This document shows, piece after piece, positions 12,456 through 41,000 of a DNA stretch of 64,000 nt. The stretch's first letter is position 1; every line of letters starts with the position of its first letter. The position numbers and the translations under genes were made by a program. The DNA comes from Daphnia carinata (lineage: Eukaryota; Arthropoda; Branchiopoda; Diplostraca; Daphniidae): contig NW_026712480.1 in the NCBI RefSeq assembly GCF_022539665.2, forward strand, positions 62,001 through 126,000. Reading direction: 5' to 3'. The notes below the pieces were generated by a model. The model was given only the letters and a program-made list of their open reading frames with translations, did not search any database and was not told the DNA's origin.

Positions 12456-15400
12456 CTAGTGGATTTGATCGTCAGCTTCTTCACTAGTTTTCATTGGCAT
12501 ATTTTTAAGCTCAATTAACGCGTTGACAATCTTGTACTGGTCCGTTTCGCCAAGTTTGTCTCGTACTCGCCTTTGGTGAAAGCCGTTCATGTGGAGTCGG
12601 ACAGCAGGTCTGTAGCTTCGGCCATCAGATTTGTTTGATTTTAATAGCTTCCAGAGAGACTTCCCCTCTTCTACTAAATTCATTTTTCCTGTTGCACTTC
12701 GTATTCTCTGATGGACATAGCCAGAGATGCCGATTTGGTGGTTGGATAACGAGCACGACAATACGTAGATAATGTCAGAGAGACCGCCCATCAAAAGCAA
12801 ATCTTTTGCGACATTGAACGGCAAAATTTTCCTGAAGATGGTTAAGACAGCCCCAGCACTTATTGAAACAGCTCCGCCAATGATAATGAATGGTACAAAT
12901 AGGGATGTCAAGACCATCTGTTTTCTAGATGTTTGGTGATTCTTCATGTACATTACATGATCAAATCCCATCAAACGAAAAAGATCCAACTCGCGTTCGA
13001 CAGTGTTGGCTTTTACCTTGCGGATATCACTGTCGATGAAGTCAAGCGCAGTGTCTTGTTTTACCAACCACGTAGCTTCATAAATTGCTTGCCGGCTTTT
13101 CAAAAAATCCAAAATGCAGTCACGTTCAACGTCGATGTTAGTGATTTCGTCCACTTTTTTCTTGAGGACACGTTCGTCCATTTCCTTTAGTCGGACACCA
13201 GAAATGACGTAGGCAGCAATCAAGTCATCCAGCATATCTCGATAAGGTGTCAAAGGCAACAAGTTGATTACTTCGAGACGATTCGCATTGTCTTCACTCT
13301 TCAGCCAATGTCGTCTAACTATTTCGGCACGCAACTTGGTCGCCACTAAACGCATCACAGCGTCTTCGTACGCAGGACAGTTTGGATATTTAAAACTTTG
13401 ACCATCGTAATTAGGTGAGAGATTGCCAGCGTCGTCGATAATATTTTGATTTTTCAGTTCGCCCATAATTGCTTTGCGTTCCGCTTGACTAATATCGGCC
13501 TTACGTAAATCGTCGTCTTTTAACTGGCCAAACAGCTTCAAGTTGACTGATTTGAGTTTCGCGACATCAACTTTGGCCATCTTGTTGAATCTAAATTTAT
13601 CTCCGCTACGATTGTACTCTTGATTGCCATAAAGATTGTCTTCGACGTAATTTTGCGAAAAAATGATTCCCTTTTTTTCCCCAATTTTGTTGCAATCAAT
13701 AGGATCATACAGGATGTAATCCTTGCCTAAAAAGTCTAATTCTTTGGCCTCGTCGCGATCTAGATTGAACCTGTCGACGATGCAGTCTTCCACGACGATG
13801 AAATTTTCGTTATCGAACAACGCGCCAATTTTGATCAGTTCCGCCCAGAACAATTCCCTCGTACAGGGAATCAAATTGTCTTCTTCAAATTTCCTTTTCA
13901 ACTGGTTTTCGAATTCTTTTTCAATATCCTCTTTGCTCAGTTCCTTTTTCACCGCCTGTTTGATAGCTTTTTCTAAGGTCGCCGCGCAGACACCGTAAGC
14001 GTTTGCTACCCGAACAATGGCCGTTTTCCAATTGGATTCTGCAATTTGCTCGTCGGAAGAGTTCCATCTCGGTATGGTGCTGGCATTGTTCAGCTGGTGG
14101 CCAATGCACTTGGACTCGCCATCCAATAACAGATCGAAATATTCCGCCACCTTTTCGATCGAAATAGTAGAATTCTTCAGCTCCTCATTTTTATCGTCTT
14201 TTTTCTGAAAAACTTTCGAGCTTTTATGAATTTCCCGTTCAATCCACTTTTCAAAGTTACTAAGATTTTTTTCAAAAAAATCCTTAACTTTTTCGGGCAG
14301 ACGTCCTGCTGCTTCAAAATCTTCTATGGAACAATCGGTGCCCAAAAAGGATCGAACTGAGCCAAGGAAATATTGAAGCAGATTAACAATGTTATCTTTT
14401 TGCTGCGTATAGCCATCAACAGCGCAAAAAGAATCAGGCTGATCAGTTTTCCTTTCTGTCTCACGGACGACCGAAAAATTCGATATTTGCATATTGATTT
14501 GCTCACTTAGTACATTTTCGCACGTACGCATTATTTTGATAAGTTCATCTTGGTTTCTTTCGAGTCCTTCCTTCAGAAAAATGAATGCGCGGTAGTAGTA
14601 AGCAGCGGCATAAAATTGGTTGTCTTTTGATTGGATGAGTCGTTCCAAAATATTGGCTGCAGTCGAAAGCTTCGATTTCGTATTACTCATCGCCAAATAT
14701 TTGGCAACGACAACTAAACGTGGTGGTGTCATCCAATCAATTTGACTGTAATCGGTAGAATTGTGCTCGGGAATTTTGAATTTTGGAATGAATTTCGTTG
14801 AGTATGAATACTTTTTCACGTCGAACGAGGAATCATCCATTTCATCCAGCCACAAAGCCCATTGGTCCAATACACTTCCACAGATGGCACTTACTTCCTG
14901 ATCCCTGTATTTTTTCTCACATAGTTGTTTTTTTAGGGTAGTATAATAATCTGAGAAATTATCAAATAATTTCACTTGATCTATCGTGTCTTCAAAATCT
15001 TTTTCCAACCGAGCAATGCGTTGTTTCTCTTGGACATTGCGTGTTTTCTCCATGCCAGACATTGATACCCAGTCCTGTGTGTCACTTTCATCAGGCGTCT
15101 TCCGTTCGCGTGAAATTGATTTGCATACAATAAGAATTCCACTTCCGGGTGCCCCATTGCGAGCTGCCCGACCCATCACTTGTTCCTCAATTCGTTCATT
15201 ATCAGGAAAAAGTTAGGCACACATGCAGTCCTCCATTTTTGCGCAATTGTTCGCCGATTTTCATATCCGTTCCTCGTCCAGCCAAGTTGGTGGCGACGAT
15301 AACATGCCCAATGTTCAGCTCGCTACTTTCAAATGCGAATTTCTCGTAATCGCGTGTGTACCGATGGAGACGACGGGTTTTACTCAACTCAGGATTGGAG

Positions 15401-18400
15401 CTCTTTATGCGTTGATGGACGACATTGGCAACTTTGATGGACTTGCAAAAAATGATGGAAGAACGTTCTGCCTCGATAATAGCATTACTGTCCGTGACAA
15501 TGGCATCTAGCCATTCTTCTTCTGTTGACAGGATCTGGGGATCTCTTTTCTGAAATAGTTTAGGAAAAGCGCTAGGAAAGTGGCGTAAATCGCACTTAAA
15601 TGTATTCTGTAGAAAAATCTGTTCTTGTTTGGACCCTAGCGTCCCTGATACACCCAATAGCCCATGGTATTTCAACAAATATTCGGCGTTTGAAATGTAA
15701 ACAGCTTTGAGACTTTGTAGCGTCAATTTACACCCTTCCTTAAGTTGAAGAAACTGATGTAAGGCTCCTTCCCATTGCGACAGGGTTTGATCCGTTCCGG
15801 TGTCGGGATCAATTATAATCACTTGTGGATTGAGATCTGGACAAGTGTCTGTTCGGTCTTGGTCAATGACGTAGTCCTCGTCACGCCTTAATTCCAAGGC
15901 TTGAAAGGCGCTGTTCAGCCAAGTGTCAAGGTTTCGATCAACAAAGGTGAGCAGATGAGAAGGTATTCGGATGCGACGCAGGCGATTAGCTATTTTGCGG
16001 AAATAGAAAACCAATTTCGCGTTAAGATCCTTCCCTTCGAGTTCTGTTGGGATATAGTTAACCTTCTCTTTTGTAATTTGGCTGGCGTCAGTTATGAGTA
16101 GGTGTCCTTGTGAATCAATCATTTTTTTCTCAATTAGATGATTCCACAGTGCATCTCTCTCCGATTCGTCCAATGGCGCGTGGACATACTTCAGATCTTC
16201 TTTAGTTGTAACACCGTACAAATCGAACAAGACATCAGATTTAATTGATTTTTTTACTTGCTCTTTCGAATTGTTTTTGTAAACAGATTGGTTGCGCACT
16301 TTTTCCCAAATGAAAACGTACAAAGATTCTAAAGTTTCCATGCCGGGTATCTCGTGTGACAAATAGAGGGTGTTGTTTCCTTGGTCCAACAACAGGCTAT
16401 CCACCTCGTCAATAATGGCGTATAACAATTCTTCGCTGTTACAAATATTACGGCTGTAGAATTTGGTCAATAAATAATCCCGTTGAAAATGGGCCAACTG
16501 TCCGTAAACCACTTTGGCAGTATAACTTGCTGTACGTTCATCTTCCGATTGGCTGCAGTTGTTTGCCACCGATACACCGAAATACTTATAGAGATCTCGC
16601 AATCCTCCATCAGCTACTGAGAGATTTGAATCGCGAAGTGCTAATAAATCGTTCCTGGTAATGATGTCGATTTTTTGCGTTGCCTTCTTACCGACGAACC
16701 AACTCCGAACAACAGCAATCGCCACTGCGGCCACAATTAACGACTTGCCTTCGCCGGTAGCTACCTGAGCTAATTTTCTCTCAGCGGTTTCCTCACTATT
16801 AGGGAGCAACATCAGTATGGCCAGAATCTGGGTGTCACGGAGGCGGAAGTTTTTGTCTATTGGCTTACGAAGTTGCTGTACGGCGCACTCAAAGTCGTAC
16901 AAAAATACGGCCAAAGATTTGAGATCACCGTCTTTGGTTGCGTCGACTTTTAAATTTTTTTTCCATTTCGTTGTTATATTTACTTTTTTTCCTAATGTCC
17001 TTTGATCATTGATGTAACTCAAGATGAATATTATTCGATCTTCGAGCACTTTGATTTCTTTTTGGGATTTTGTTGTCATTGCCTCTGACATCTGTTTCCA
17101 GGTGTCTGGAATGAATTTGTTTGAATTGTCCTTGAGGAAATTTTCAAATTTTTGTCGATTATCTATAGTGGCTTTGTTAAGTGTTCGATCTTTGCTAGAT
17201 TCTTCCTGAGATACGCCAGAATCACCGGCAGGGCTGCCTTTGATGCCAGGCGCTGGCTTTGTGCACCCTATCTTCACTTCACCCAATTGCTGGTGGACTA
17301 GATCACTGAATTGCGCTTCATTATTTTGAATTTCCTCCACCAGTGCATCGACATTTGGCAATTCATTTTCTTCTAACGCAATATCGGACAAAAACATTTT
17401 CCAGAGCGATTCTTGCATTTGTTTCCACTCGTTTACTTTTGAAAAATGACGGTTGAGGCTATGACGAATAACGCCATATTTCTTCATGGCTTTGGCCGAT
17501 GGGTTACTATACCGCTCAAATGTCGATACAATTGTCGCATAACGTTGATTCCGCGAGCCATCACTAACCTCAACGTATGAAGCAACTTCATCTTTTTGTA
17601 ATTCTTCGAGCTTGGAGTAGTATTTGATTTCTAGTTTTTGGTCATTTTCAAATCCTATGTAATTTCCTTGCTGGTCCTTGTCTCCATTGTGGATGAAACC
17701 TACATCGCCATTCGCTTGTCCCGTTTTGCCGTCTGAAACAGACGCCTTATAAACAACACCACCAGTGCCCATTGCTTGATAAACTTCCATGCCAACAGGA
17801 GGGAGGCCCCGATCTTTATCCAGCAATTCCAAGATTATGTCACCGTCATAGCCACCTTGTCCGAATTTCCGACCTGTATGGAATCAAAATGACATGCGCG
17901 TAAAAACATCTTAAACTGAAATCTGATTCTGAAATATTTTTTCATGGATACAGGATGTGTACCTTGACAGAGTATGAGTGTGTGTCTTTTTTTTTTTTTA
18001 TTTTCATACAACGAAAAATGGATTTCGCTACCGTCTCCAAGCGCGCCTGACCTTGCCAGAGGTTCCTGTAGCCCCGTGATCCCCGGGGCCACAAGGCCAT
18101 CATACTTTTCAGATATTGTATACTCTAGTTTCTTGTAGAGTTGTTTTATTGAGGGTGACTTGTAACCTCGCTTTTCTTCTTCCTTTCTTTTTTCATTCCC
18201 ATCAATTGGAAAAATGGGACTAAACACTCGTTGAAGTTCTTCCGCTGACCACTTGAGACCAGAACTTCCGTTCCCTCCATTCGAAGTGATCGTCCATTGC
18301 TCAGCTCCGATAACTTGGTTGCACTTAATATGAACATTACCACCGCTTTCGCCCGCGTTCAGTAATCTTCCTAAGTTGAAAAACATGTCAATTGGGTAAC

Positions 18401-19595
18401 ATACTATGGTTTTAACAATATATAAGTGTTATGATAGCTTACGTCTTGATTTGGCGGTAGCATGTTCTCCGGATACATCCCATACTATTTTCTGGTTCTC
18501 ATTGGCGGAAACGATAAGTTTATCAGTAACGAGACCTATATTGATTCCATGCCAGATGTCATTGTCCAAATCGCAATCGATGTGAACGGAAGAATATCCG
18601 GCAATTTGTATTTCCTGTACGTCCTTATTACTGGCTTTTAATTCCCTCATTTTCCCCATAAGTTTACTAACAAAAATAGAAACGCCATTAATGGAAATAA
18701 TTTTCCTTCCGTGTTCTGTTCTCATTTTGATTGTGGTTTCTGGCAGCAAGAGTTTTTTGTGTATCTCTCTGATAACTAAATTCAATTTTGATGTCCACTC
18801 TTTTCTTGGCGGCGCAGTAAACTCGAAACGCTGTATCCATTCGGGGATTGCACTTGATTCGTTATCGCTTTCTGCTGGTGGGAATGTTTTCAAGATTTTT
18901 TCAACCAGGATGTTTATCCATTGCTGCCAATCTGTCTCTCGGCTATTCGTATTTACATTGCTTTCCAGAATATGAGCTTCCAGAACGTCTTGTAATTTCT
19001 TGTCTTCATTTGCTTTTGCCAAAAAGTCAGTCAGATCCGAAATGAATTTTATAAATAAAGCACCATCAACGTCGTTGAGGATGTCTTTCCTGCACCGGAA
19101 AAAGATCTTATCGATAAAACAACTCTTCAGTTTATGGAAATTTTGGTTCAAGAGAAGGGCGAAACGGGGCGTGTTTTTGAACAGCTCTTCCTGTTGGACA
19201 ATCAATTGAAAATATTGACAGCCTCCACCAAACCAAGTCCAAAGCTGTGATTCCTTTGCAATTAGTTTGGTACTAATATCTTCGAACGAATCGATGGAAT
19301 CCAGCTCATCCAAGACAGTCGACATAGCTGTGCTCATGTCGGAAGTTTCATTATTCAAGTGGCTAAACGCCGTTTCTAAACTGCTCCGCATCCACATCTT
19401 CAAGAGGGCTTTGACGTATTGCAATTCCACGCAAGTTCTCTCCAATGGTTTAAGTGTCCATCCCACCTCTGATTCAATGTGACTGACGGCATTTTCAACC
19501 AGTTTTTTCGAGTCGGGATTTTTGTCTTGAATCCAGCACAGGATCTTCTCGAAAACATCTTTCGGTCTCTCGTAGTGCCAATTTCTTACAGCCAT
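12456..19595 (-). CDS. SecA-like motor ATPase with unknown N- and C-terminal regions, copy 1
   Basis: Three exons: 19595-18443, 18370-17963 and 17873-12456, all GT-AG and in phase (both junctions phase 1). About 2,326 residues. Exon 1 (about 384 residues) matches no family I know. Exon 2 is glycine-rich (AGESGGN, SNGGNGSSG), and exon 3 opens with FGQGGYDGD. The SecA motor follows: Walker A ATGEGKS (Lys about 897), DEVDS (about 1009), a stretch like the end of the SecA preprotein cross-linking domain (DEDYVIDQD, VIIIDPDTGT, GALHQFLQLKEG), then VSGTLGS, NLAGRGTD (about 1383-1390), GGLHVCLT and GRAARNGAPGSG. The C-terminal 900 residues are helical, with a hydrophobic hairpin at about 2170-2225 (SLFVPFIIIGGAVSISAGAV; LLLMGGLSDIIYVL). 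In bacteria SecA drives export through SecYEG; no such channel is known in animal membranes, so the role is unknown. One frameshift: an A/T run at about 15205-15211 is two bases shorter than in copy 2, giving a stop just before GRAARNG. A likely 5'UTR acceptor (TTTTTTACTTAG) ends about 25 bp before the ATG. Confidence 0.88.
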
Positions 19596-20276
19596 TATGA
19601 AATACCATTCAAAATTTCTAAGTAAAAAAAAAGTTTTGTTACAAGCGACGTTTACTCAAGAACCATAATGTTATTAAACTTGTTTTAAATTTTCATGCAA
19701 AAAAAATGCTTTTTCTTCTTATACTACTCACTTTTCCTATTCCCTTTTCTATCCACTCTTTAATACAACAAAAAGAATAGCATAAATCTAGTGGAATGTT
19801 CCTAGTTCTATTTTAATTTGCAGAAAACTGTCGCGGCGCTCAGACCGCAATAGCCGTTGGTCGAACAATCATGCAGTCCGATATAACGCACAACGTGTTG
19901 CAGAAAAGTCCAGATGAACCAAAAATTCACTTACTCGTTATCGAGATGCTATTATTTACGCAGAGATTGATGAAAACTCCTGGTGTTGGGGTTCAATTAT
20001 TTAACGCACAACTTGTTCTGTTAAAAAACGTTCTGCCTTTTCATATGGGCATGTCTAGGTGAATCAATCTGGTCTCTACAATTCTGCTGAGTAACACTGA
20101 AATAAAAACAAACGGGTTCGTCGGTAAAGGCTGGTCTCGCTGATTTCGAAGACTTTAACACTAACAAATGTTGTTATGACTTCTATTTTTGGAGGCAGCT
20201 GAACCGTAATAAAAAGAGTTCTTGTGGACAGACCGATTTTCCCCAGTCATAACTCTGACGAGTGGATCTCCTCAGG

Positions 20277-20452
20277 CAACTGAAGTTAGTTGGACGTGGA
20301 CTTTTAGAAATTACGAATCAAAGCCGCGTCCTTTACGCTTGACGACACGCTTTAGTTATCGTAGCACCGGAGGTCGGACGGACGCGTAGTATTTCACGAA
20401 CAGCCAGTCACATCCTACCACGGTTTGCACAATCATCAAGGGCGAGGTCGTC
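20277..20452. promoter_or_regulatory. Highly conserved upstream block, unit 1
   Basis: About 175 bp that differs from 33619-33793 at only about eight positions by eye, although the surrounding upstream flanks show many substitutions and indels. It lies about 700 bp upstream of the SecA-like start codon. No ORF is conserved in it. It could be an enhancer, an upstream exon or an ncRNA; none can be chosen from the sequence. Confidence 0.35.
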
Positions 20453-22178
20453 GGTTAAACAGAGAGATGAAGTGTTGGGTTGTAAAACCAAGCCTGCCTA
20501 CGCTCGTATACCTGTACTATGTTATATTTGCCGAAGACGATAAATACACGGTGTGAGCGAACCTTACAGCAAAAACGATTTACCTGAAATGAAGAGAAAA
20601 GAAAATTTGACAATAGAACAACTACTAATGCAAAAGAGGATAACTTCATTCGGAAATGGGGTATTACAGGCGCCCCAATAAATACCGATCCCCCCAACGT
20701 GGCGCGAATTTTTTTTTTATGCCTCTGCGATTTTTGTAGAGGAATTTTTTCTACCCCACCTCACTCTCCCGTACAAAAAATATATCTATATTGCTGAGCC
20801 GTCCAGCGGCAGTTTTCTTTCATGCTACTATAATAATTTCAACTGGAACAAAAAATTTTTGGAGCTGTCCTAAAAATTGTCTGCCAGCTCTAGGAGCCGA
20901 TGTTGATGGAGATGGTTCCACATGAACTGGTGTTTTTCTACATTTATGAAAGCATGATTTAGACAAATCTGCGCGTAGGCGGTGCTCGTATTCTCGCTGT
21001 TTATTTTAATGCACCATATAGTTTTCTAATATCTGATAATAATAACGACCGCAAGAGAATAGGCAAAGACATAAGACCCTGGTTAATTCTCTCGTATAGG
21101 AAGGTCTCCTGTTGCCTTTTCCTTCCCAAAAATGGTCTTTAACTTCCGTACATCCAGCGCCAATTCAAAGCAGCGAGTGTGATGTGAACAGGTTTAGAGA
21201 ACCGCAATGCATGTTTTTCCGCTTTCCTTATCACATAGATTTGACGAACGCTGTGTAATAACACTCGTATACAAACAAAAATTTTAAAAAATCATCTTAT
21301 TTTCAAATATCTTCGAACATCGTAGGTCTATTAAAAAACTAGACGGCATACAGCAATCCTAAGCTATATCGATACTTAGATAATCGATCAGCGAATTCGC
21401 TTCTTTTTCAGGGACCAACCGAATCGAAACTTAATTACAGTATAATATTTGTCTTTGATACATAAACATCCTCCATGTTTCGAATAACTAAATCAGGAAA
21501 AATTTGATAACCAACATATATCAGACAAAGTCAAGGGAAGTTAATTTTGGTTAAAATTCCCTGTTTATTCTATTTAACGCCATCTCTATAAAAATTCATC
21601 GGAACAAATGTTTTTTTTGTTAGAACCGAAACCGCACCCTTCCATTCTGAACGGATCGGTTCTGCAACTTTTTTTTCGGTTCACGGTTCGGAAAAGTCTC
21701 GGTTCGTCAGATCCGTTGACACCCTTACCTGAGCGGATCCGTTTCTCTCAGAGTAAGCAACCATGCTTCTATTCTATGACTCTGTCAAGAATCAAGATCA
21801 AAGAAGGGGTTTTTCCCAATTCAATCAGTGTGTTTTTTTTTTGCGAATCGGGAAGGCATTTCATTGCTTCGGGGTGGGTCTTTCGGTATCTAGGGTGTTC
21901 AATACGTCGCCGCTCTGAGCCCAATCGGGTTTCAATTGGGGCCCGTAATCGGGGAACCAACACTGGTTGTAACCAACCGAGTTATGCAATGACATAATCG
22001 AGTGCGTGTCATCTGTTATGACGATGTTGCCGATGACCGTTTTTTAGATTCTTACCAGTTGTTACAAAACAATTCCCAGTTGCTTATGCAATTGCTGCTC
22101 ACGACTGATTCCTCCAAGATTGTGGGTACAACTAGAAAATAATAACGCAGCTTGAAGGAAACTGATGACTCGGTTGAT

Positions 22179-24187
22179 GCTGCTAATAACCTCTGAGAAA
22201 ATTTAAAATGCACAATTTTTGAAAAAATTTCTTTACAATAAAAAAAAGCAAAAATTTTCTAGAACTTCCACTTAAGAATACATAAATTATTATTTTTTAT
22301 TGTTTCAAGAGAACTATATTTATTTGCAGTATTTTCTCAGGAATTTGTGAACATCGATGTGTCATTTTACTACCATGATTTTGAAATAGAGGAAAAAAGC
22401 CAGTATGGCAAGTTACCAAATGCGAAGTTTTTTCTGGTTTGTAATATTGGAATAAGACTAGCATTTAATGGGACAGACTTGTACTTAATCTGTAGAACTT
22501 AACTTGCTCTACTGTTTGATATAATTATTTAATGGGTTTCTTCAATTTTACCTTAGAAATTTCATGTGCTGTCCAGGTGTCAGCTAACAAATCGTACGCT
22601 GTTTAGGTTTTTCGCCCGCAAGCAAAACGCACAGATTTCAATTACCGTTTTCTCGAATATTGTTATGTTTTAAATTTTGCCCTTTTGATAAATTGCGTAA
22701 CCCCCCTTTTAGTTTATAATTCGCCTTTAAGATGTCCCAATAGAACCCCTATCAGTATACCATTCGTGATGCGACGAAATGTATGTTTTTTGTCCCAAAT
22801 TAGCAGGAACCGGGCCTGTGTCCCAATTCGCTCTTTTACCCTAGATGTATTTTCCATAGAAAGAGGGTAGTGACACAAACCGTCATCACTGCAATATGCA
22901 AGGAACGGCAAAGGTAATACCCGTAAAGATAATACGCATATAGTCACTCCAAAGTAAGAGTGCATTAGAGGGGCAACAATCATCATCCAAATCAGAAATG
23001 ATAGTTCCTGGTAGAGGGTTAAAAGAGATAGTCAAATCTCGACGCATCGTTCAAATCGTTTAATCGCGACTTCCATTCAAGGCCCGATTTCAGTAACCTA
23101 TTTTGGTTTGGATTAGTTGTATCAAATTTCATCCATCTTTAGAGCCGACTGGTAACTTTACATCGATTAGGCGCTGGAATAGGAAGTTCTGTTCCTATTA
23201 TCTGTAGTACTTTGCTATTCTACCACTGAACAATTGTTAAACGTATTACCCTAGAATTCCACGCGCTTTAGTTTAGGAAACTACCATGACACGGGCTTTT
23301 AATCTTCGTCCCTGTTGCAAGGACAACGAGCACGATAACGAACAATCGATGTCCTCATCGTTACCTTAACGCTTGGCTGCTGTAAATAAGCTTGTACCGT
23401 GCACATCTACGGACGTAGCCATGTACAATATGTATGAAAACGTTTGCATGGTTGGCAGCAGCTTGTCAAGGTCCCCCGTACTTAACTTCTATTGAAAGCA
23501 TTTCGTAAAATGAATTTAGATTGCACCATTGTTCAAAAACTTTGCGTTAATATCTGTGCAAGTTACAGGGCAATACTATTTGATTTACGTTTCCAGTTTC
23601 ATGTTCTATAACTGAGTAGGCCTATTAATAACAATAATTTGTAGCGGTAAGTCTTGGCAACTGCGACACAGAAAAATACCAGAGGAACGCTGAATAAAAA
23701 TCAATTAAAGAAAGAAAGCGGAACAAACGGTGATGTGTGAGCCTATTGATTTCTGCATGTTAAGTTCACGAGTTTACGTGAATTGCAGTTAGAAACTTCC
23801 TTAAATTCACGTCCTAAAAACGAAAGATTGCGCTTTAGTGACGCGCTATGTTTAGTTTTGGCGTGACGGAAGTCACCACTTTATGATAAGTCAAAAGACT
23901 CTAGGTCGTTGAGTTTCATCGTCAAACGTGGCCATTCCCAAACGAAACCAGAGAACAAATTCGGATAGCCAGTTACGTATTCCTTCTACAAAGATACGTG
24001 TAGTAATAGGTAATGACTTTTTAAATCAAATGTCCTAAATAGAAATTTACTGTAGTTATAATGGGTGTATTCCTACATCGTTCCCGGAAGAAAACAAAAA
24101 CTAAATAATGTTAAGGAAATCCCAGGTGAAAACCACACAGCCTTTCGACATTCTTAAGCTAAGACGTATTGGTTCAATTTTTTCAAT
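22179..24187. other. Single-copy spacer between duplication units, no recognised gene
   Basis: AT-rich sequence not shared with the second unit. Short ORFs (for example 22714-22986 minus) have no recognisable family features. Confidence 0.45.
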
Positions 24188-24958
24188 TTATAGTAGACCT
24201 AGGCTAATGCTCAAACCAAGATCGAGGCACAAGTTCAGAAGCGATCCATCGCTAGAAACACTTGTTCTTGGGGACGTGCCCACAAATGGCGTCCGAGCTT
24301 CGGGGTGCGGGAACCGACCACTCACTACCCTTACCGGGGGCTTATGCAGCGTGCAGGTGCCTCCGCTCTTAAGAGGTTCGTGAGTGAAATGGGAATTACG
24401 AGCGCATATTGTGCTACAGGAAACGGGATGCAAAATGTTGATGATAATGACAAGTTTCAATTCAATGAAAATGCAGCTGTTGAGAGAAATTGCCGAAGTG
24501 TCTGCGGGCAAGCTAATGGCTGAACTTGCCTGTCGGACGCCAATAGTAGGACTCTTAATAAATAAATTGATTTTGTCAGGTTGCTCTTGCTAAATATTAA
24601 CCTGAATACCTGAACAGATGCCAATTCCGTTAGAAGAGTAGGTCCATCAATAATTGGCACACTGTTTGAAGTTGATGTTTCCTGTTTGACATCGGTAGAA
24701 GGAACTTGTCTGCGCATACGAGAATCGATACGGTAATTGGTTGAAGACTCTAGGGGAACCCAGTCGGCAAAGCGCTCGACGATGGTCGGATCCAAGTTGG
24801 CTGAAGTAACGGCTACCACCAGCAACATCAAGGTAACGATTTTTTTCTATTTTAACAAAATTTAAATTAAGCTACAAAAAATAGCAATGACTGGAATCAG
24901 AGGCGACGTCGCAGCAGTAAGAAATAAAAACATTTTTGATGTATTGTTTTACCTGCAT
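24188..24958 (-). CDS. Small secreted protein of unknown function
   Basis: Exon 1 holds only ATG-CAG (24958-24953) before a GTAAAA donor. Exon 2 is 24846-24610 and exon 3 begins at 24539, all in phase 0. The joined start reads MQKKIVTLMLLVVAVTSA, a typical signal peptide with predicted cleavage after TSA. The mature part begins NLDPTIVERFADW and has a basic RMRR site before Gln that could be cut by a furin-type protease. Exon 3 stays open to 24188 but its later part looks compositionally unlike coding DNA, so the true 3' end may be earlier. A TATA box at the right distance supports a real gene. I do not recognise the family; a neuropeptide-like precursor is one possibility. It is the only apparent gene between the two duplication units. 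Confidence 0.55.
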
Positions 24959-24999
24959 GTTGATAACTGGTTAGAAACCTGTGTCTGCTGCAAAGGTCG

Positions 25000-25041
25000 A
25001 CGATGAGTTTGAGTTTCGTAAAACTTGCGTTTACTTTTATA
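25000..25041 (-). promoter_or_regulatory. TATA-box promoter of the secreted-protein gene
   Basis: On the minus strand TATAAAA lies at 25041-25035. About 30 bp downstream (about 25005-25012) is the expected start in an ACTCAAACTC context, giving a 5'UTR of about 50 nt before the ATG at 24958. Confidence 0.55.
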
Positions 25042-25753
25042 CCATAGACAGCTGCATGACATTTGATCGACGCAATCGTTACACATACCCAATCGTCTGT
25101 TGCAAGATATGCTGGCATTGTCCAAACACTTGCGATTGGCAGCCTCCTCTCCAATGAGGTCACACACCAAATAGTATACAAATCTTGGTTTAGTTACGGT
25201 TACAATGCATTTCAAGCATTTTACAAACCCGTTTTGATTTTCATTAACAGATAACTGCAACTGAACATGTTTCCTTAAGCTATTGATCGTTATTGCCACA
25301 ACAGTACGAGGCCACATAAAAAAACCAGAAAGAAATTAAAAAATAATAATACAAAAATTATTTACTAAATTTTGTAAGCTTAATTTATTAATTTTTTCAT
25401 TTCCAGAGAGACATTATTATAGTCTTAGCGGAAGCCAATTGGTCGTAAAACAAATAGTTTCCAAAATGCTTTCTCCATGAACACAACATCAGATCTCTTC
25501 TGTAAACAAAATTGAAAGATATTGCAATAATTCACAAGAATAAAATATGTGTAATGCAGTTCATTTCAAAGACTATTACGGCACCACAGGCAAGACTTTT
25601 CCACACGTCGCAAACGACGGTTTGATACAGCGGTAAGTTGTACGTCTCCCAAACGAAGTTGCGATCTGTTAATAAAAATTTATTCATTTACATATTCACC
25701 GTCTAAGCTGCAGCCAAATTTTGTAGTAAAATAAAATATAAAGTAGCCCTTGC

Positions 25754-28700
25754 CTATTGGATTAGATCGTCAGCTTCTTCACAAGTTTTCATCGGCATAT
25801 TTTTAAGCTCAAATAACGCGTTGACAATCTTGTACTGTTCCGTTTCGCCAAGTTTGTCTCGTACTCGCCCTTGGTGAAAGCCGTCCATGTGGAATCGGAC
25901 AGCAGGTCTGTAGCTTTGGCTATCAGATTTGTTTGATTTTAATAGCTTCCAGAGAGACTTCCCCTCTTCTACGAAATTCATTTTTCCTGTTGCACTTTGA
26001 ATTCTCTGATGAACATAACCAGATATGCCGATTTGGTGCTTGGATAACGAGCACGACAATACGTAGATAATGTCAGAGAGACCGCCCATCAAAAGCAAAT
26101 CTTTTGCGACATTGAACGGCAAAATTTTACTGAAGATGGTTAAGACAGCCCCAGCACTAATTGAAACAGCTCCGCCAATGATAATGAATGGTACAAATAG
26201 GGATGTCAAGACCATCTGTTTTCTAGATGTTTGGTGATCCTTCATGTACATTACATGATCAAATCCCATCAAACGAAAAAGATCCAACTCGCGTTCGACA
26301 GTGTTGGCTTTTACCTTGCGGATATCACTGTCGATGAAGTCAAGCGCGGTGTCTTGTTTTACTAACCACGTAGCTTCGTAAATTGCTTGTCGGCTTTTCA
26401 AAAAATCCAAAATACATTGACGTTCATGGTCGTTATTGGTGATTTCATGCACTTTTCTTTCGAGGACACGTTCGTCCATTTCCTTTAGTCGGACCCCAGA
26501 AATGACATAGGCAGCAATCAAGTCATCCAGCATATCTCGATAAGGTGTCAAAGGCAACAAGTTGATTACTTCGAGACGATTCGCATTGTCTTCACTCTTC
26601 AGCCAATGTCGTCTAACTATTTCGGCACGCAACTTGGTCGCCACTAGACGCATCACAGTGTCTTCGTACGCAGGACAGTTTGGATATTTAAAACTTTGAC
26701 CATCGTAATTAGGTGAGAGATTGCCAGCGTCGTCGATAATATTTTGATTTTGCAGTTCGCCCATAATTGCTTTGCGTTCCGCTTGACTAATATCGGCCTT
26801 ACGTAAATCGTCGTCTTTTAACTGGCCAAACAGCTTCAAGTTGACTGATTTGAGTTTCGCAACATCAATTTTGGCCATCTTGTTGAATCTAAATTTATCT
26901 CCGCTACGGTTGTACTCTCGGTTGCCATAAAGCTTGTCTTCGACGTAATTCTGCGAAAAAATGATTCTCTTTTCTTCTCCAGGTTTGTTGTACTCAATAG
27001 GATCATACAGGATGTATTCCTTGGCTATTGAATCTAATTCTTTGGCCTCGTCGCGATCTAGATTGAACCTGTCGACGATGCTGTTTTCCACGGCGACGAA
27101 ATTTTCATTATCGAACAATGCTCCGCTTTTAATCAGCTCCGCCCAGAACGATTCTCTCGTACAGGGAATCAAATTCTCTTCTTCAAACTTTCTTTTTAAC
27201 TGGTTTTCAAATTCTTTTTCAATGTTCTCTTTACTTAGTTCCTTTTTCACCGCCTGCTTGATAGCTTTTTCTAAGGTCGACGCGCAGACACCGTAAGCGT
27301 TTGCTACCCGAACAATGGCCGTTTTCCAATTGGATTCTTCAATTTGCTCGACGGAAGAGTTCCATCTCGGTACGGTGCTGGCATTGTTCAGCTGATGGCC
27401 AATGCACATGGACTCGCCATCCAATAACAGATCGAAATATTCTGCCACCTTTTCGATCGGAATAGTAAAATTCTTCAGTTCCTCATTTTTATCGTCTTTT
27501 TTCTGGAAAAATTTCGAGCTTTTATGAATTTCCCGTTCAATCCACTTTTCAAAGTTATTGAGATTTTTTTCCAAAAGATTCTTAACTTTTTCGGGCAGAC
27601 GTCCTGCTGCTTCAAAGTCTTCAATGGAGCAATCGGTTCCCAACAAGGATCGAACTGAGCCAAGGAAATATTGAAACAGGTTAACAATGTTATCTTTTTG
27701 CTGCGTATAGCCATCAACAGCACAAAACGAATCAGGCCGATTAGTTTTCCTTTCTGTCGCACGGACGACCGAAAAATTCGATATTTGCATATTGATTTGC
27801 TCACTTAATACATTTTCACATGTACGCAATATTTTGATGAATTCATCTTTATTTGTTCCAAAATCTTCCTTTAGAAAAATGAATGCGCGGTAGTAGTAGG
27901 CAGCGGGATAAAATTGGTTGTCTTTTGATTGGATGAGGTGTTCCAAAATATTGGCTGCAGTCGAAAGCTTCGATTTCTTGTTACCAGTGGCCAAATGTTT
28001 GGCAACGACAACTAAACGAGCTGGTGTCATCCAATCAGCTTGACTGTTACAAGGAAAGTTGTGCTCAGGAATTTTTAATTTTGGAATCAATTTCGTTGAG
28101 TACAAGTATTTTTTCACGTCGAATGGGGAATCATCCATTTCGTCCAGCCACAAAGCCCATTGATCCAATACACTTCCACAGATGGCACGTACTTCCTGAT
28201 CACTGTATTTTTCCTCACATAGTTGTTTCCTTAGGGTAGTATAATATTTTGAGAAAATATCGAATAATTTCACTTGATCTCTTGTGGCTTCAAAATCTTT
28301 TTCCAACCGAGCAATGCGTTGTTTCTCTTGATCATCGCGTGTTTCCTCCATGGCGGAAATTGTTGCCCAATCTTGGGTATCGTTTTTGTCAGGCGTCTTC
28401 TGTTCGTGTGAAATTGGTTTACATATAACGAGAATTCCACTTCCGGGTGCCCCATTGCGAGCTGCCCGGCCCATCACTTGTTCCTCGATTCGTTCACTTT
28501 CAGGAAAAAAAGTTAGGCACACATGCAATCCTCCATTGTCGCACAGTTGTTGGCTGATTTTCACATCGGTTCCTCGCCCGGCCAAGTTGGTAGCTACGAT
28601 AACATGCCCAATGTTCAGCTCACTGCTTTCAAATGCGAATTTCTCGTAATCGCGTGTGTACCGATGGAGACGATGGTTTACACTTAGCCCAGGATTGGAA

Positions 28701-31700
28701 CTCTCTATACGTTGATGAACGACATTGGCAACTTTGATGGACTTGCAAAAAAGGATGATCGAACGTCCTGCCTCGATAATAGTCTTGGTCTCCATGACAA
28801 TGGCATTTAGCCATTCTACTTCTGTTGACAGGATTTGGGGATCTTTTTTCTGAAATAGCTTAGGGAAAGCCCTAGGAATGGGGCATAACTGACACTTAAA
28901 TGTATCCTGTAGAAAAATCTGTTCTTGTTCGGACCCTAGCGTCCCTGATACACCCAATACCCCATAGTATTTTAACAAATATACGGCATTTGAGATGTAA
29001 ACCGCTTTGAGACTTTGCAGCGTCAATTTACACCCTTCCTTAAGCTGAAGAAACTGATGAAGGGCTCCGTCCCATTGCGATAAAGTTTGATCAGTTCCAG
29101 TGTCGGGATCGATTATAATCACTTGCGGATTGAGATCCGGGCTACTGTCTGTGCGGTCTTGATCAATGACGTAGTGCTCGTCACGTCTTAGATCCAAAGC
29201 CTGAAAGGCGCTATTCAACCAAGTGTCAAGGTTTCGATCAACAAAGGTAAGTAGATGAGAAGGTATTCGGATACGACGCTGGCGATTAGCTACTTTGCGG
29301 AAATAGAAAACCAATTTCGCGTTTAAATCCTTCCCTTGGATTTGAATTGGGATGCAATTAACCTTCTCGTTTGTAATTTGGCTGGCGTCAGTTATGAGTA
29401 GATGTCCTTGTAAGTTAATCACTTCTTTCTTAATTAGATGATTCCATAGTGCATCTTTTTCCGATTCGTCCAATGGCGCGTGGACATACTTCAGATCTTC
29501 TTTAGTTGTAACACCGTACAAATCGAACAAGACATCAGATTTAATTAATTTCTTCACCTGTTCTTTCGATTTTTTTTTGTTAACAGATGGGTTGCGCACT
29601 TTTTCCCAAATAAAAACGTACAAAGATTCCAAAGTTTCCATGCCAGGAATCTCGTGCGACAAATAGAGGGTGTTGTTTCCTTGGTCAAGCAATAGACAAT
29701 CCACCTCGTCAATAATGGCGAATAACAATTGTTTGCTGTAATAAATATTACGGCTGTAGAATTTTGTCAATAAATAATCACGCTGGAAATGGGCTAACTG
29801 TCCGTACACTACGTTAGCAGTATAACTTGCTTTGCGTTCATCTTCCGATTCACTACAGTTGTTTGCCACTGGTACGCTGAAATATTCATAGAGATCCTTC
29901 AATCCTCCTTCAGCTACCGAAAGATTTGAATCTCGAAGTGCTAATAAATCGTTACTGGTAATGACGTCGATTCGTTGGTTCGATATCTTACCGCCGTAGT
30001 AATAACCGTGAACAAGAGCAATTGCCACTGCAGCCACAATGAACGACTTGCCCTCGCCGGTAAATACCTGAGCTAATCTTCTCTCAACATTTACCATAGA
30101 ATTAGGGAACAACATCAGTATGGCCAGAATCTGGGTGTTGCGAAGGCGGAAGTTATTGTCTATCGGTTTACGAAGTTGCTGCACGGCGCACTCAAAGTCG
30201 TACAAAAACACGGCCAACGATTTGAGATCATCTTCTTTGATTGCATCGACTTTAATTTTTTTTTTCCATTTCTTTCTTATATTTTCTTTTTCTCCTTCTT
30301 TCCTTTGATAATTGATGTAACTCAAGATGAATATTATTCGATCTTCGCGGCTTTCAATTTTTTTTCGGGATTTTGATTTCATTTCGTCTGACATCTGTTT
30401 CCAGGTGTCTGGAATGCATCGATTTGAATTGTCGTTCAGGAAACTTTCAAGCATTTGTCGGTTATCCTTATTGGCTTTGCTAAGTGTTCGATGTTTGCTA
30501 AATGCTTCCTGAGATACGCTTGAATCACCGGCTGAGATGCACTTGATGACAGGCGCTGGCTTAGTGCACCCTATCTTCTCTTGATTGAGTTGCTCGTAGA
30601 CTAAATCACTGAATTGTGCCTCATTATTTTGAATTTCCTCCATCAATTCGTCGACATTTTGCGATTCGTTGTCTTCCAACGCAGTACTGGACAAAAAAAA
30701 TTTCCAAAGCGATTCTTTCATTTGCTTCCATTCATTTACCTTTGAAAAATGACGGTTGAGGCTATGACGAATGACGCCATTTTTCTTCGTTGGTGTGACC
30801 AATGGGTGATATCCGCCTATATCAGTTATATCCATCTGCTTCTCAGATGGTGGTATAATTGTTGCATAACGTCGGTTTCCCAACTCATCACTAGTCTTTA
30901 CGTATAAAGCAACCTTATCTTTTGTAATTCTTCTTTCTTGGAGTAGTATTGGATTTCTAGTTTTTGGTCGTTTTCAAATCCTATGTAATTTCCTTGCTGA
31001 GCCTTGTCCCCATTGTAGATGAAACCTACATCGCCATTTGCTTGCCCCGTTTTGCCGTCTGAAACAGACGCCTTATAAACAACACCACCTGCGCCCATTG
31101 CTTGATACACTTCCATGCCAACAGAAGGGATGCCACGTCCTTTATCAGACAATTCCAAGATTATGTCCCCGCCATAGCCACCTTGTCCAAAATGGTTACC
31201 TGTAAGGAATCAAAATGACAAGCGCATAAAAGAAAATTTAAATATGATTCTGAAATATTTTTCGGGGTAGAATTTCTTGGGGTAGAATGTGTAGTTGTGT
31301 ACCTTGACAGAGTATGAGCGTGTGCCGTATTCCTGTTTTGCTTTCATACAACGAAAATTGGATTTCGCTGCCATCTCCAAGCGTGCCTGACCTTGCAGTA
31401 GGTTCGTTTGATCCGTCTCCTTTTATTTGTACGTGACTTGTGCGCATGTAGTCATAGTCTTCAAACAGTCTATCCTCTAGACTCTTACAGAGATCTTTTA
31501 TTGCCGGTGGCTTGAAAACTTGCTTACCCTCTATTTTTGTATTTTCATTCGCATCAAGTGGAAGTATGGGACTAAAAATTTCTTGAAGTTCTTCCACCGA
31601 CCACTTGAGACCAGAACTTCCGTTCCCTCCATTGGATGCGATCGTCCATTGCTCAGCTCCGATAACTTGGTTGCACTTAATAAGAACATTACCACCGCTT

Positions 31701-32945
31701 TCGCCTGAGTTTAATTCATTTTCTAAGTTGAAAAACAAGTAAATTGTGTAAGACAATATTGCTGTAACAATATAAAATGTTATATAGCTTACGTCTTGAT
31801 TTGGTGGTAGCATGTTTTCCTGATACATCCCATACTATTTTCTGGTCCTCATTGGCGCACACGATAAGTTTATCAGTAACGAGACCTATATTGATTCCAT
31901 GCCAGATGTCATTGTCCAAATCGCAATCGATGTGAACGGAAGAATATCCAGCAATTTGTATTTCCTGTACGTCTTCATTACTGGCTTTTAATTCCCTCAT
32001 TTTCCCCATAAGTTTACTAACAAAAATAGAAACGCCATTAATGGAAATAGTTTTCCTTCCGTGTTCTGTTCTCATTTTGATTGTGGTTTCTGGCAGCAAG
32101 AGTTTTTTGTGTATCTCTCTGATAAGTAAATTCAGTTTTGGTGTCCACTTGTTTATTGGCGACGCAGCCAACTTGAAACGCTGTATCCATTCGGGAACTG
32201 CACTTATCTCGTTATCGCTTTCTGCCGGCGGGAATGTTTTCAAGATTTTTCCAACCAGGATGTTAATCCATTGTTGCCAATCTGTCTCTCTGCTATTTAT
32301 CTTTATATTGCTTTCTAGTACATGAGCCTCCAGAACGTGTTGTAATTTTTCGTCTTCATTGGCTTTTGTCAAAAAGTCAGTCAGATGCGAAATGAATTTT
32401 ACAAGTACAGCACCATCAACGTCGTTGAGGATGTCATTCCTGCATCGAGAAAAGATCTTATCGATAAAACAACTCTTCAGTTTGTGGAAATTTTGGTTCA
32501 AGAGAAGGGCGAAACGGGGCGTGTTTTTGAACAGTTCTTCTTGTTGGAGAATCAACTGGAAATATCGACAGCGTCCACCAAACCAAGTCCGAAGCTGTGA
32601 TTCCTCTGCATTTAGTTTGGTACTAATATCTTCGAACGAATTGATGGAATCCAGTTCGTCCAAGACAGTCGACATAGTTGTGTTGATGTCGAACGTTTCA
32701 TTCTCCAAGTGGATAAACGCCTTTTCTGAACTGCTCCTTACCCACATCGTCAAGAGGGCGTTGACGTATTGCAATTCTACGCAAGTTCTCTCCAACGGTT
32801 TAAGTGCCCATCCCACCTCTGAATCGATGTGACTGACGGCATTTTCAACCAGTTTTTTCGAGTCAGGATTTTCGTCCTGAATCCAGCACAGGATCTTCTG
32901 GAAAACATCTTCTGGTGTTTCGTATTGCCGATCTCTTCCAGCCAT
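25754..32945 (-). CDS. SecA-like motor ATPase with unknown N- and C-terminal regions, copy 2
   Basis: Exons 32945-31793, 31722-31303 and 31199-25754, the same structure and phases as copy 1 (exon 1 is 1,153 nt in both). About 2,339 residues. It starts MAGRDRQYETPEDVFQKILC. The motor is complete: TGEGKS (near 30053-30070), DEVD (near 29698-29710), GALHQFLQLKEG, VSGTLGS, NLAGRGTD (near 28577-28600), GGLHVCLTFFPESERIEEQV and GRAARNGAPGSG, so the region broken in copy 1 is intact here. The C-terminal hydrophobic hairpin and GGLSDIIY motif are present. Copy 2 has its own frameshift near 30918-30930, where an A run is one base shorter than in copy 1 (ELQK-DEV in copy 1). From about 30900 to its end the frame is open for over 1,700 codons, which argues against long-standing decay. 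It diverges most from copy 1 just after that shift (KQMDITDIGGYHPLVTPTKK replaces an unrelated stretch). Confidence 0.88.
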
Positions 32946-37773: not shown

Positions 37774-38062
37774 TTGCTGCAGGTAAAGAGGCAGTTGATT
37801 CGAATTTGGCGAGGAGAGTCAGCTAATTCGCCAGATGACAACTGATAACGAAAGTTCCGTGATTCATAACGCGGAGGGGATGAAAATTCGAAGAATCAAA
37901 AGGGGTCGACTTTCAAAAATGGTTTTGCTTGGCATTAATTCCCAGGGTACCTGTAGCTTGTTATCGAATGTTAACCCTGTGAAATACACAACCTCAGTTA
38001 AGCAAGTGGTCTTAGTCCTTCTAGACGTGTTTTTCTTCTTCTCATTGTTCAAAATTGTTGAA

Positions 38063-41000
38063 ATGCCTCCAAACTGTAGTGCCGTCAAGTGTAATTCAAA
38101 GAGAAGTGAGCGATCAGTTTCATTTCATAAGTTTCCCACTGACGATCAGCGACTACTTATCTGGCTGAAACATTGTGCACCTGGATTTAAGCCTTCAAAA
38201 TCTTCCGTGTTGTGCTCTCTTCACTTTGATCCCACTTTGTTAACTTGGACTCCTCGCCGAAAATTAAATAGGTTGTCTAACAGCAAACTTAATCCTATTG
38301 ATTTAGACACACACTGAAACTGAGCGACCACAACACCAGCATGAAAACGAATCAGATATCGTTAATCTGAATAGACCTGCCAAGGTTAATACGCAGTGTA
38401 CCAGTGAATATGACATCGTTTCTGCTGACCTGAACTTCAGCGGTGAAAGCCACAACTCAACCATTATTTCTTTGCCTTTTGTTCGCAGACAACTCATCGC
38501 GGATTTTACCAGCCCCGTAAAAAGACTAAGGTTAGATCAAAACTATGAAGCTCCTACCAGCCCCTGTCTACCTGCAATTGACAAAGATCTAGAAAACGAT
38601 TTTAATGAGGATGGTGCGCGTTGCAATTCTGAGCTGGTTTCGTTTAATGACAATCGTAGCTCTTCATCACAAAAAAAGAATAATTCTTCATTTAAAAAAA
38701 GAATGCGAAAATCAGACTCGCCACCTTGAAAAAGAAAATCACCGGCTGCGCATTAAGTACAAGTGTGAAAATGATTACCTTAAAAGAGTAAATTGCCGTC
38801 AAAAACAAAAAATTATTGTGATGTCTCTTCGTGAGCGTCAGAATTTGAAGGACCTAAACATCAAAGTTTGCCAAATTTCAATTTTAAAGCAGCAGCTAAA
38901 AAAGTCCACAAAAGAATGCCCCGATCTAAAAGAATTTAGAAAAAACGCAATAAGAAAAACAGACATGTCCGAAACAGCTTACCAACTCTTTTTGAATGAA
39001 AAATGGAATTCCGGAAAAAGAACTGAAGGCCGTAGATACTCTTCATTCATCCGGGACCTGGCAATAAACCTAAGCTATTATTCGAACGCTGCGTATGAAA
39101 AACTTAGAAAGATCTTTACCTTGCCGTCCGTTCGAAGTCTTCGCCGCTACCATGCACCAGTCGGTTGCTCTTCCGGGATTTTAAAGAATGATTTAGCTCA
39201 GATAAAGACAGACATTTCAGAAGGAACACACGGCCAAGATGTAACCCTTAGTCTCGATGAAATGTCTATCAAGAAGGCGTTGTGCTACGACCCGCAACTT
39301 AAGAAATATATGGGATTTACCGATTTCCCAGATGACAAACCTTTCAGTCGGGAAACAGATCACCAAATTCTTGCTACGCAAGTCTTGGTGTTCTATGTTG
39401 TAGGATTAGATGGAAAATGGAGATCGCCTGTGGCTTATTATATTACGAACCATTTAACCGGGCTGGGCCAGTCGAAAGTGCTGAACGATGTCATTATTGC
39501 TTGTCATGAATTCAACGTAAATGTAAAAGTAGTTACTTTCGATGGGTTGGCGGCAAATCTAACGATGGTCAATGCCCTTGGAGCGAACATCAGGATTCCC
39601 CAAAAACCACCGAAATGTGTTCCTAGCCGTCGCACAAATAACACTCCAGAGCAAATGAAAATCCACCGTATAAAATACGCTGCGATGAAAACTTTTTTCC
39701 TTCATCCTAAGACCAAAGAAGACATTTACCTGATGTTAGATACGTGCCATATGTTAAAATTGGCTCGTAACCTAATAGCACAGACACCGAAAGGAATTGT
39801 TATACCTGGCTTTCCGAAACCGGCAAAATGGTCGTACATTACCGAGCTCTTCGAATACCAGAGCCGTCTAGGATTTCGTCTTGGTAACAAGCTGACTAAA
39901 AACCACGTCGACATTGGCACACACAAGATGAAAGTAGTTCTGGCTGCTCACGTTTTGAGTAATTCAACTGTGGATACTCTTCGCCATTTACGGGAGGATC
40001 TGAAACACTTAAACGTAAAGTTATATTTTCATTATGGTATAAAAATGATTTTACCTTTTTAATATGGTGTTTTTTGCAGTTTACGGGAAGTGAGGCCACT
40101 GAGGAATACTGCCGAAAGTTCAACAAGATTTTCGACATCCTGAACTCATGGAATCCAAAACAAACAGATGACAGAGCACCACTAACACTTTCCAACCTGT
40201 TGGAAAAAGAAAAAGAACTTAAAGGATTACAAAATTTTGTTAAATCTTTGACATTTACTTCCTGCAAGTTAGTAACTGCCAGTAAACGGAAGGCTGTGAT
40301 TATCGGCTTCACTGCCACCATAAAATCAACAATATCACTCGCATGGAATCTGCTCACACAAGAAAAGCCTTTGGATTATGTATGCACGAGACTCCCCAAC
40401 AGGATCCACTGGAGCATTTCTTTAGCATAGTCCGGTAAAGGGTGGGTTAAATAACAATCCCACAGCCATTCAAGTGAAGTATATCATGAGAAAACTTCTA
40501 GTTATAAAAAGTGGTGTTGTTACAGCTTCCTTGTGTTGTCTGTTCACCTCTTCCGTTTGCAATATTAAAGGACCTGAATTGTGAAAAAGAAAATGATGCT
40601 ATTGACACTGAGATGGAGGTAGAGATTGAGCTTTTCAGTAATGTAGTAGAGTTAAATGCGTCCAACATGAATGATACTTTTACAAACCAGTGTCTTGCCT
40701 ACATTGCTGGATATTGTGTTTTAAAAATTGAACGTCTCTCCAACTGTGTCATGTGTAGAAATGCCTATTTGACTCGATTGATGATCCATTGGAAGAAGCC
40801 ACAGCAAACATTTCAAATTTAAGAACGAGCAGATGGATATGCATTCCTTCAAACTCTGTGTACACAATTGCATTATCATGCGAATCTGTTTTTCAATCAA
40901 TGTTGGCCCAAGGATTAAAACTCCAGTGTGATATACTTGCCATGTTAACCCAGAAAGTCCTAAAGAAAAGTAATATTAACCAAATGTTTCCTACTCTTGC

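What the first reader, a model, noticed from the sequence alone, without database searches (positions are those of the whole stretch)
12456..32945. Tandem pair of intron-containing SecA-like motor genes in an animal genome
SecA is the bacterial/plastid preprotein-export ATPase. Here two genes of about 2,330 codons carry the full ordered motif set: Walker A (T-G-E-G-K-S), DEVD, the DYVID / DPDTGT / GALHQ-LKEG run that in SecA joins the cross-linking domain to motor half 2, VSGTLG, NLAGRGTD, and G-R-A-A-R-N-G. Each has two spliceosomal introns in identical phases, and they lie among innexin, DOCK and P4HA genes, so they are not bacterial contamination. Flanking regions of about 520 residues (N) and about 900 residues (C) match no SecA part that I recognise. 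Seen: motifs, introns, duplication. Known: SecA works with SecYEG, which animals lack. Inferred: ancient horizontal gain or a eukaryotic SecA-derived family with a new role.
Basis: partly seen in the sequence, partly recalled or inferred. Interest (0 to 1): 0.9.

Follow-up and report, generated by a model that had tools for sequence, protein, structure and literature searches.

The report
SecA-like motor genes in water fleas
Two neighbouring water-flea genes encode giant proteins built around the motor of the bacterial protein-export machine SecA; they belong to a little-studied family found in animals, fungi and bacteria that live inside cells, some members of which end in toxin-like parts.

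Summary
Real. Two tandem, intron-bearing genes of about 2,330 codons with a SecA-type motor lie in a Daphnia carinata contig. The motor matches SecA far better than helicases by sequence and predicted fold, including a helix in the place of SecA's scaffold helix. They are not canonical SecA: below NCBI's SecA cut-offs (162 against 862 bits) and outside canonical SecA in a tree (100/100). The window contig is an alternative haplotype of a 7.9-Mb contig; each window copy has a small frame-shifting indel that the other haplotype lacks. The family is in print (Duplouy 2013 shows a large Daphnia secA clade). Wider sampling here finds named bacterial kin mostly in Rickettsiales, Parachlamydiales and Amoebophilaceae, and rejects a single animal clade (AU p 1e-9). 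Toxin- or effector-type domains occur in 14 of 234 fetched relatives (11 unnamed) and in one other D. carinata gene, but in only 1 of 24 named-bacterial tails. The window genes have none; they have an N-terminal domain seen only in Daphnia, which holds the introns. Best reading: a host-kept SecA motor from a family traded with intracellular bacteria, under purifying selection. Its cellular role is inferred, not shown.

The parts
31793..32945 (-). Gene 1 exon 1 (Daphnia-specific N-terminal domain, first part)
   Evidence: tblastn of P0002, 83.6%; splice fit
31723..31792 (-). Gene 1 intron 1, phase 1
   Evidence: GT..AG fit that keeps the frame (a second acceptor at 31705 also fits)
31303..31722 (-). 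Gene 1 exon 2
31200..31302 (-). Gene 1 intron 2, phase 1, at ILCQ^G, the place found in 6 of 6 D. carinata models tested
   Evidence: a second donor six bases away also fits
25757..31199 (-). Gene 1 exon 3: end of the N-terminal domain, SecA motor, tail; one small frame-shifting indel near 30920 that the C2 allele lacks
   Evidence: ORF 25754-30973; tblastn frames; allele comparison
28919..30151 (-). Gene 1 SecA_DEAD (NBD1 with Walker A TGEGKS and DEVD; cross-linking-domain place with a weak PP_bind match)
   Evidence: Pfam 82.7 bits
28553..28843 (-). Gene 1 P-loop_SecA (NBD2, NLAGRGTD)
   Evidence: Pfam 47.1 bits, cut-off 27
28214..28378 (-). Gene 1 predicted 55-residue helix (model 327-381) lying where SecA has its scaffold helix
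26039..26221 (-). Gene 1 hydrophobic hairpin shared with symbiont and other animal members
   Evidence: Kyte-Doolittle scan (weak by itself); profile match to Rickettsiales tails, prob 92.4, E 5e-7
18443..19595 (-). Gene 2 exon 1
18371..18442 (-). Gene 2 intron 1, phase 1
   Evidence: same intron in P0002
17963..18370 (-). Gene 2 exon 2
17874..17962 (-). Gene 2 intron 2, phase 1
   Evidence: same intron in P0002
12456..17873 (-). Gene 2 exon 3, in two frames (15202-17883 and 12456-15212) because of a small indel near 15208; open on the C2 allele (LOC130687829)
15622..16851 (-). Gene 2 SecA_DEAD
   Evidence: Pfam 97.2 bits

Best explanation
The genes are host-encoded members of a SecA-derived motor family that animals, some fungi and intracellular bacteria share and have traded repeatedly. 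The common plan is: a variable N-terminus, a SecA motor, a helical tail, a hydrophobic hairpin, and in some members a toxin- or effector-type domain at the C-terminal end. I infer that the motor clamps and threads an unfolded chain as SecA does, and that where an effector is attached the motor handles it, with the hairpin as membrane anchor. In the window genes a motor-plus-tail block without introns sits behind an intron-bearing domain seen only in Daphnia. No effector domain is recognised, and the genes have multiplied. They are most likely a protein-unfolding or translocating ATPase that the host keeps for dealing with intracellular microbes or for a reproductive-stage task. Shown: SecA-type motor, family, scattered distribution across animals and intracellular bacteria, low dN/dS. 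Inferred: chain threading, membrane insertion, direction of transfer, cellular role.
For: SecA beats helicases by sequence (24 of 25 PDB sequences are SecA) and by fold. Own clade of 81 rows apart from 6 canonical rows, 100/100. A scan of 84,980 species genomes gave 29 relatives (loci, some from one genome): 10 with Rickettsiales names (Bandiella and Arcanobacter placed from recall), 4 Parachlamydiales, 4 Amoebophilaceae, 3 Alphaproteobacteria MAGs, 8 others. The eukaryote label needs at least 11 changes on starred branches; one animal clade rejected, p 1e-9. By precomputed Pfam, 14 of the 234 fetched relatives carry toxin- or effector-type domains; of the 12 whose place I saw, 10 are at or near the C-terminal end. 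D. carinata L024 ends in Endonuclea_NS_2, 44.8 bits. Hairpin homology Daphnia to Rickettsiales E 5e-7. dN/dS 0.37 for the tandem pair, 0.24 and 0.22 against the C3 paralog, lowest in the motor. Intron 2 at one place and phase in 6 of 6 D. carinata models tested. A SecA DEAD-like unigene is among the top 30 up-regulated in sexual females of D. similoides (PMC5037449, Table 1 passage).
Against: Of 24 tails of named bacterial members only 1 has a recognised toxin domain (Colicin D); some tails are cut by contig ends. 11 of the 14 relatives with such domains are unnamed metagenome proteins. In P0182 the OTU domain lies inside the motor region, and in P0191 RickCE lies mid-tail, so not all effector-type domains are C-terminal. 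No effector domain in the window genes. Both window copies are frame-broken. A simple hydrophobicity cut-off does not set the tails apart: 149 of 156 tails pass 1.5, but so do about 120 of 156 shuffled ones (at 1.9, 121 against 41). The Daphnia hairpin matches vertebrate tails poorly (prob 19.7). Earlier authors inferred transfer from eukaryotes to bacteria (PMC3639933, PMC9680635). The D. similoides unigene was not matched to this gene.
Confidence: 0.5

Rival explanations
1. An old eukaryotic SecA-like family, inherited vertically, from which bacteria picked up copies (the direction favoured by Duplouy 2013 and the wAlbB paper).
For: Members in arthropods, nematodes, molluscs, rotifers, a tardigrade, fish, amphibians and fungi. 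A Rickettsiales MAG row (P0199) nests among insects. Published trees. Few named bacterial tails show a toxin domain.
Against: Animals as one clade rejected, p 1e-9. The eukaryote label changes at least 11 times on starred branches. The C-terminal domains found in kin are of types known from bacterial conflict systems (that general link is from PMC3482391 passages and recall).
Confidence: 0.28
2. Recently gained or decaying selfish genes without host function.
For: Both window copies are broken by indels; the D. sinensis model P0045 lacks the Walker A stretch; a P-element-like transposase lies about 5.6 kb from gene 1.
Against: C2 alleles are open over 1,806 and 1,814 codons. dN/dS 0.19-0.27 in the motor for three pairs. 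The Daphnia clade spans six species. Homopolymer indels would also fit an unpolished haplotig.
Confidence: 0.15
3. A nucleic-acid helicase used as an immune sensor, only loosely SecA-like.
For: Helicase_C scores near its cut-off (21.7 against 23.5).
Against: SecA is the best match in Pfam, PDB by sequence, PDB by fold and NCBIfam, and the run DPDTGT..GALHQ..LKEG is there.
Confidence: 0.05

Closest known systems
Eukaryotic secA-like genes and their Wolbachia homologues wBol1_1091/1092 (PMC3639933, section 9 read; PMC9680635, section 5 read; phage WO EAM SecA, PMC5062602, passages)
   Same: Very long secA-domain genes shared by arthropods and symbionts; a large Daphnia clade is in their tree.
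   Different: They saw little evidence of true introns near the Wolbachia genes and inferred eukaryote-to-bacterium transfer. Here Daphnia introns are conserved, and more bacterial members break up the eukaryotic clade.
Canonical SecA / SecA2
   Same: NBD1, NBD2, and a predicted helix in the scaffold position.
   Different: Below all NCBI SecA cut-offs listed; weak cross-linking domain; no SecA_SW match; different N- and C-termini; separate clade.
Polymorphic toxins and intracellular-symbiont effectors (PMC3482391, passages; one mentions SecA-like domains in Amoebophilus effectors)
   Same: Some relatives carry C-terminal domains of these kinds (Ntox17, Ntox46, CDI toxin, AHH, WHH, Colicin D and others).
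   Different: The window genes and most relatives examined carry no recognised effector domain; no immunity gene was looked for.

Membership tests
Canonical SecA | SecA_DEAD (NBD1) above Pfam cut-off | tested here: met
   82.7 and 97.2 bits against 24.6
Canonical SecA | SecA P-loop domain (NBD2) above Pfam cut-off | tested here: met
   Gene 1 47.1 bits, gene 2 allele P0002 38.6, cut-off 27; the broken gene 2 piece alone 25.5
Canonical SecA | Preprotein cross-linking domain SecA_PP_bind above cut-off | tested here: not met
   15.2, 18.2 and 15.6 bits against 23.5
Canonical SecA | SecA wing and scaffold domain (SecA_SW) | tested here: not met
   No Pfam match at E up to 1; a helix in the scaffold position is predicted and aligned
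Canonical SecA | NCBI SecA/SecA2 model cut-offs | tested here: not met
   Best 162.4 bits (window gene 1) and 167.8 (P0002) against 862
Canonical SecA | Falls among canonical SecA in a tree | tested here: not met
   81 SecA-like rows and 6 canonical rows separated 100/100
Canonical SecA | Drives export through SecYEG | not testable with these tools
   Needs biochemistry
Eukaryotic secA-like family (Duplouy 2013) | Long eukaryotic gene with a secA domain closer to animal/symbiont kin than to bacterial SecA | tested here: met
   Identity to non-Daphnia animals up to 43%, to the 6 canonical SecA at most 26%; tree
Polymorphic toxin / effector | C-terminal toxin or effector domain | tested here: not met
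   None in the window genes; present in D. carinata L024, in 1 of 24 named-bacterial tails and in some other kin
Polymorphic toxin / effector | Adjacent immunity gene | not tested
   Not examined
DEAD/DEAH helicase | Helicase family scores better than SecA | tested here: not met

The most novel reading that the evidence does not exclude
Animals of several phyla have each taken over the delivery motor of symbiont toxins and use it as their own ATP-driven protein unfoldase or membrane translocase, in Daphnia as an expanded, effector-free gene family that acts against intracellular microbes or during sexual reproduction.
Probability: 0.2. Interest if true: 0.85.

Novelty: new member of a known kind. 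Interest (0 to 1): 0.5.

Why it matters
SecA is regarded as a bacterial and plastid machine. An animal family with the motor, apparently kept under selection and shared with intracellular bacteria, some members of which carry toxin domains, makes the question of host use of symbiont machinery testable in a laboratory animal. It also warns that 'SecA' annotations in animals need be neither contamination nor export ATPases.

Full report
What is there. The window is G000:C28:62001-126000 of a 108-Mb assembly. Two minus-strand genes of three exons each encode SecA-type motors. Exons 2 and 3 are joined at ILCQ^G, phase 1, in both.

Haplotype. The pair on C28 and its flanks align with C2:55-105 kb in pieces of 97.2, 94.1, 98.3 and 97.2% identity. 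C2 carries the same tandem pair, with open exon 3 in both copies; one is LOC130687829 (P0002, 2,326 aa). Each window copy has a small indel in a homopolymer. Whether these are assembly errors or real broken alleles cannot be told here. Window gene 2 is also mixed: the first half of exon 3 is 99.9% identical to its C2 allele, the second half 93.1%, and its last stretch of about 745 columns is nearer to gene 1 (94-96%) than to its own allele (88-92%), as if sequence had passed between the tandem copies. The genome has 17 SecA_DEAD matches, a lower bound; the two on C28 are alleles of two on C2, which leaves about 15 places, nine of them on contig C9.

Kin. A protein search with the motor found 288 relatives, 120 listed. 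One with a Rickettsia-endosymbiont member found 4,632 among 7,994 scored candidates, 120 listed; ordinary SecA may be among the unlisted. The named ones come from Daphnia, insects, nematodes, rotifers, Mytilus, an amphipod, an ostracod, a tardigrade, fish, amphibians, Gigaspora-type fungi, Rickettsia, Tisiphia, Orientia and Rickettsiales MAGs; many listed proteins are unnamed. In species genomes 59 stretches matched two peptide patterns and 29 encode a relative: 10 with Rickettsiales names, 4 Parachlamydiales, 4 Amoebophilaceae, 3 Alphaproteobacteria MAGs, 4 other Bacteroidetes/Cytophagales MAGs, and one each of Flavobacteriaceae, Neisseriaceae, Myxococcales and Paceibacterota (the last groups with canonical SecA). 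These are loci, some from the same genome, and the scan depends on two patterns, so it is not a census. Six of seven of these bacteria examined have their own canonical SecA at 359-437 bits, against 101-129 for the SecA-like ones (three further matches lie under the cut-off).

Tree. On 87 rows and 563 columns, 81 SecA-like rows are separated from 6 canonical rows (100/100). The ten Daphnia rows of the window's kind form one clade (100/100), inside a clade of 27 rows with Mytilus, insects, nematodes, one Adineta protein, one Rickettsiales MAG and two unnamed ones. Its sister holds a Rickettsia (L076), a Parachlamydiales MAG (L046) and another D. carinata gene (L024). Holding all 11 Daphnia rows together is rejected (p 0.00125), and so is holding all 52 animal rows together (p 1e-9). 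These groups were tested after a first tree had been seen, and an odd letter make-up was flagged for L024. The tree does not tell direction.

N-terminus and introns. The search with P0048 290-700 gave 17 proteins from 4,686 candidates limited in length, 15 from Daphnia and 2 unnamed. Intron 2 has one place and phase in 6 of 6 models tested (P0027 was not tested), and the introns near 384-411 are phase 1 in the 5 models that reach them, two of them in P0046. In the window genes most of the motor and tail is in one exon; P0048 has two further annotated introns there. This fits an intron-free block joined to an animal front part; it is an inference.

Selection and expression. NG86 dN/dS of exon 3 is 0.37 for the tandem pair (motor 0.27) and 0.24 and 0.22 for the two genes against the C3 paralog; no significance test was made. 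In D. similoides one SecA DEAD-like unigene is among the top 30 up-regulated in sexual females, q 0 (PMC5037449, Table 1 passage); it was not matched to these genes.

What was known. Duplouy et al. 2013 (author name recalled; PMC3639933, section 9 read) describe secA-domain genes in Daphnia, insects and other eukaryotes and their Wolbachia homologues. PMC5062602 and PMC9203015 (passages) and PMC9680635 (section 5) follow. PMC3482391 (passages) notes SecA-like domains in Amoebophilus effectors; PMC4256840 (passage) lists a Legionella SecA DEAD-like protein in a table of a section on proteins transferred from eukaryotes. So the genes are new members of a known, little-studied kind. What I add is the break-up of the eukaryotic clade by intracellular bacteria, effector-type domains in some kin including one in this genome, the SecA-like structure after NBD2, and the conserved Daphnia introns.

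Mechanism. The motor parts that grip and push a chain in SecA are present or predicted, so an ATP-driven unfoldase or translocase is the most economical reading. What it pushes, and through which membrane, is not known. The host role (handling intracellular microbes, or a sexual-stage role) is a guess from the kin and one expression table.

Noticed in passing
L024:3-9041 (G000:C7, about 953502-962540): A second kind of D. carinata SecA-like gene: a frame of at least 3,013 codons without a stop, ending in a nuclease domain (Endonuclea_NS_2), grouped with Rickettsia and Parachlamydiales members; looks like a separate gain.
   Followed up: partly
window 12459-15200 (gene 2, second half of exon 3): This half is 93.1% identical to its C2 allele while the first half is 99.9%; towards its end it is nearer to gene 1, as if sequence had passed between the tandem copies.
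   Followed up: partly
L023:2168-5470 (G000:C10): Another divergent SecA-like frame (SecA_DEAD 87.4 bits), 29-38% identical to the window type.
   Followed up: no
window 37799-40059 +: THAP domain ORF followed by a P-element-like transposase ORF (TNP-like RNase H, GTP-binding insertion).
   Followed up: no
P0234 (D. sinensis) 794-1018 and the matching part of P0046 (D. carinata): OTU-like fold in front of the motor of the longer Daphnia paralogs, apparently without the catalytic cysteine.
   Followed up: partly
P0009-P0012 (D. magna), P0045 (D. sinensis): Walker A variant STGGGKS in a D. magna subgroup; the P0045 model lacks the Walker A stretch.
   Followed up: no
P0133-P0138, P0148: Gigaspora-type fungi hold members; the two in the tree (P0135, P0136) stand next to an Orientia protein. 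Fungal gene or bacterial endosymbiont DNA was not checked.
   Followed up: no
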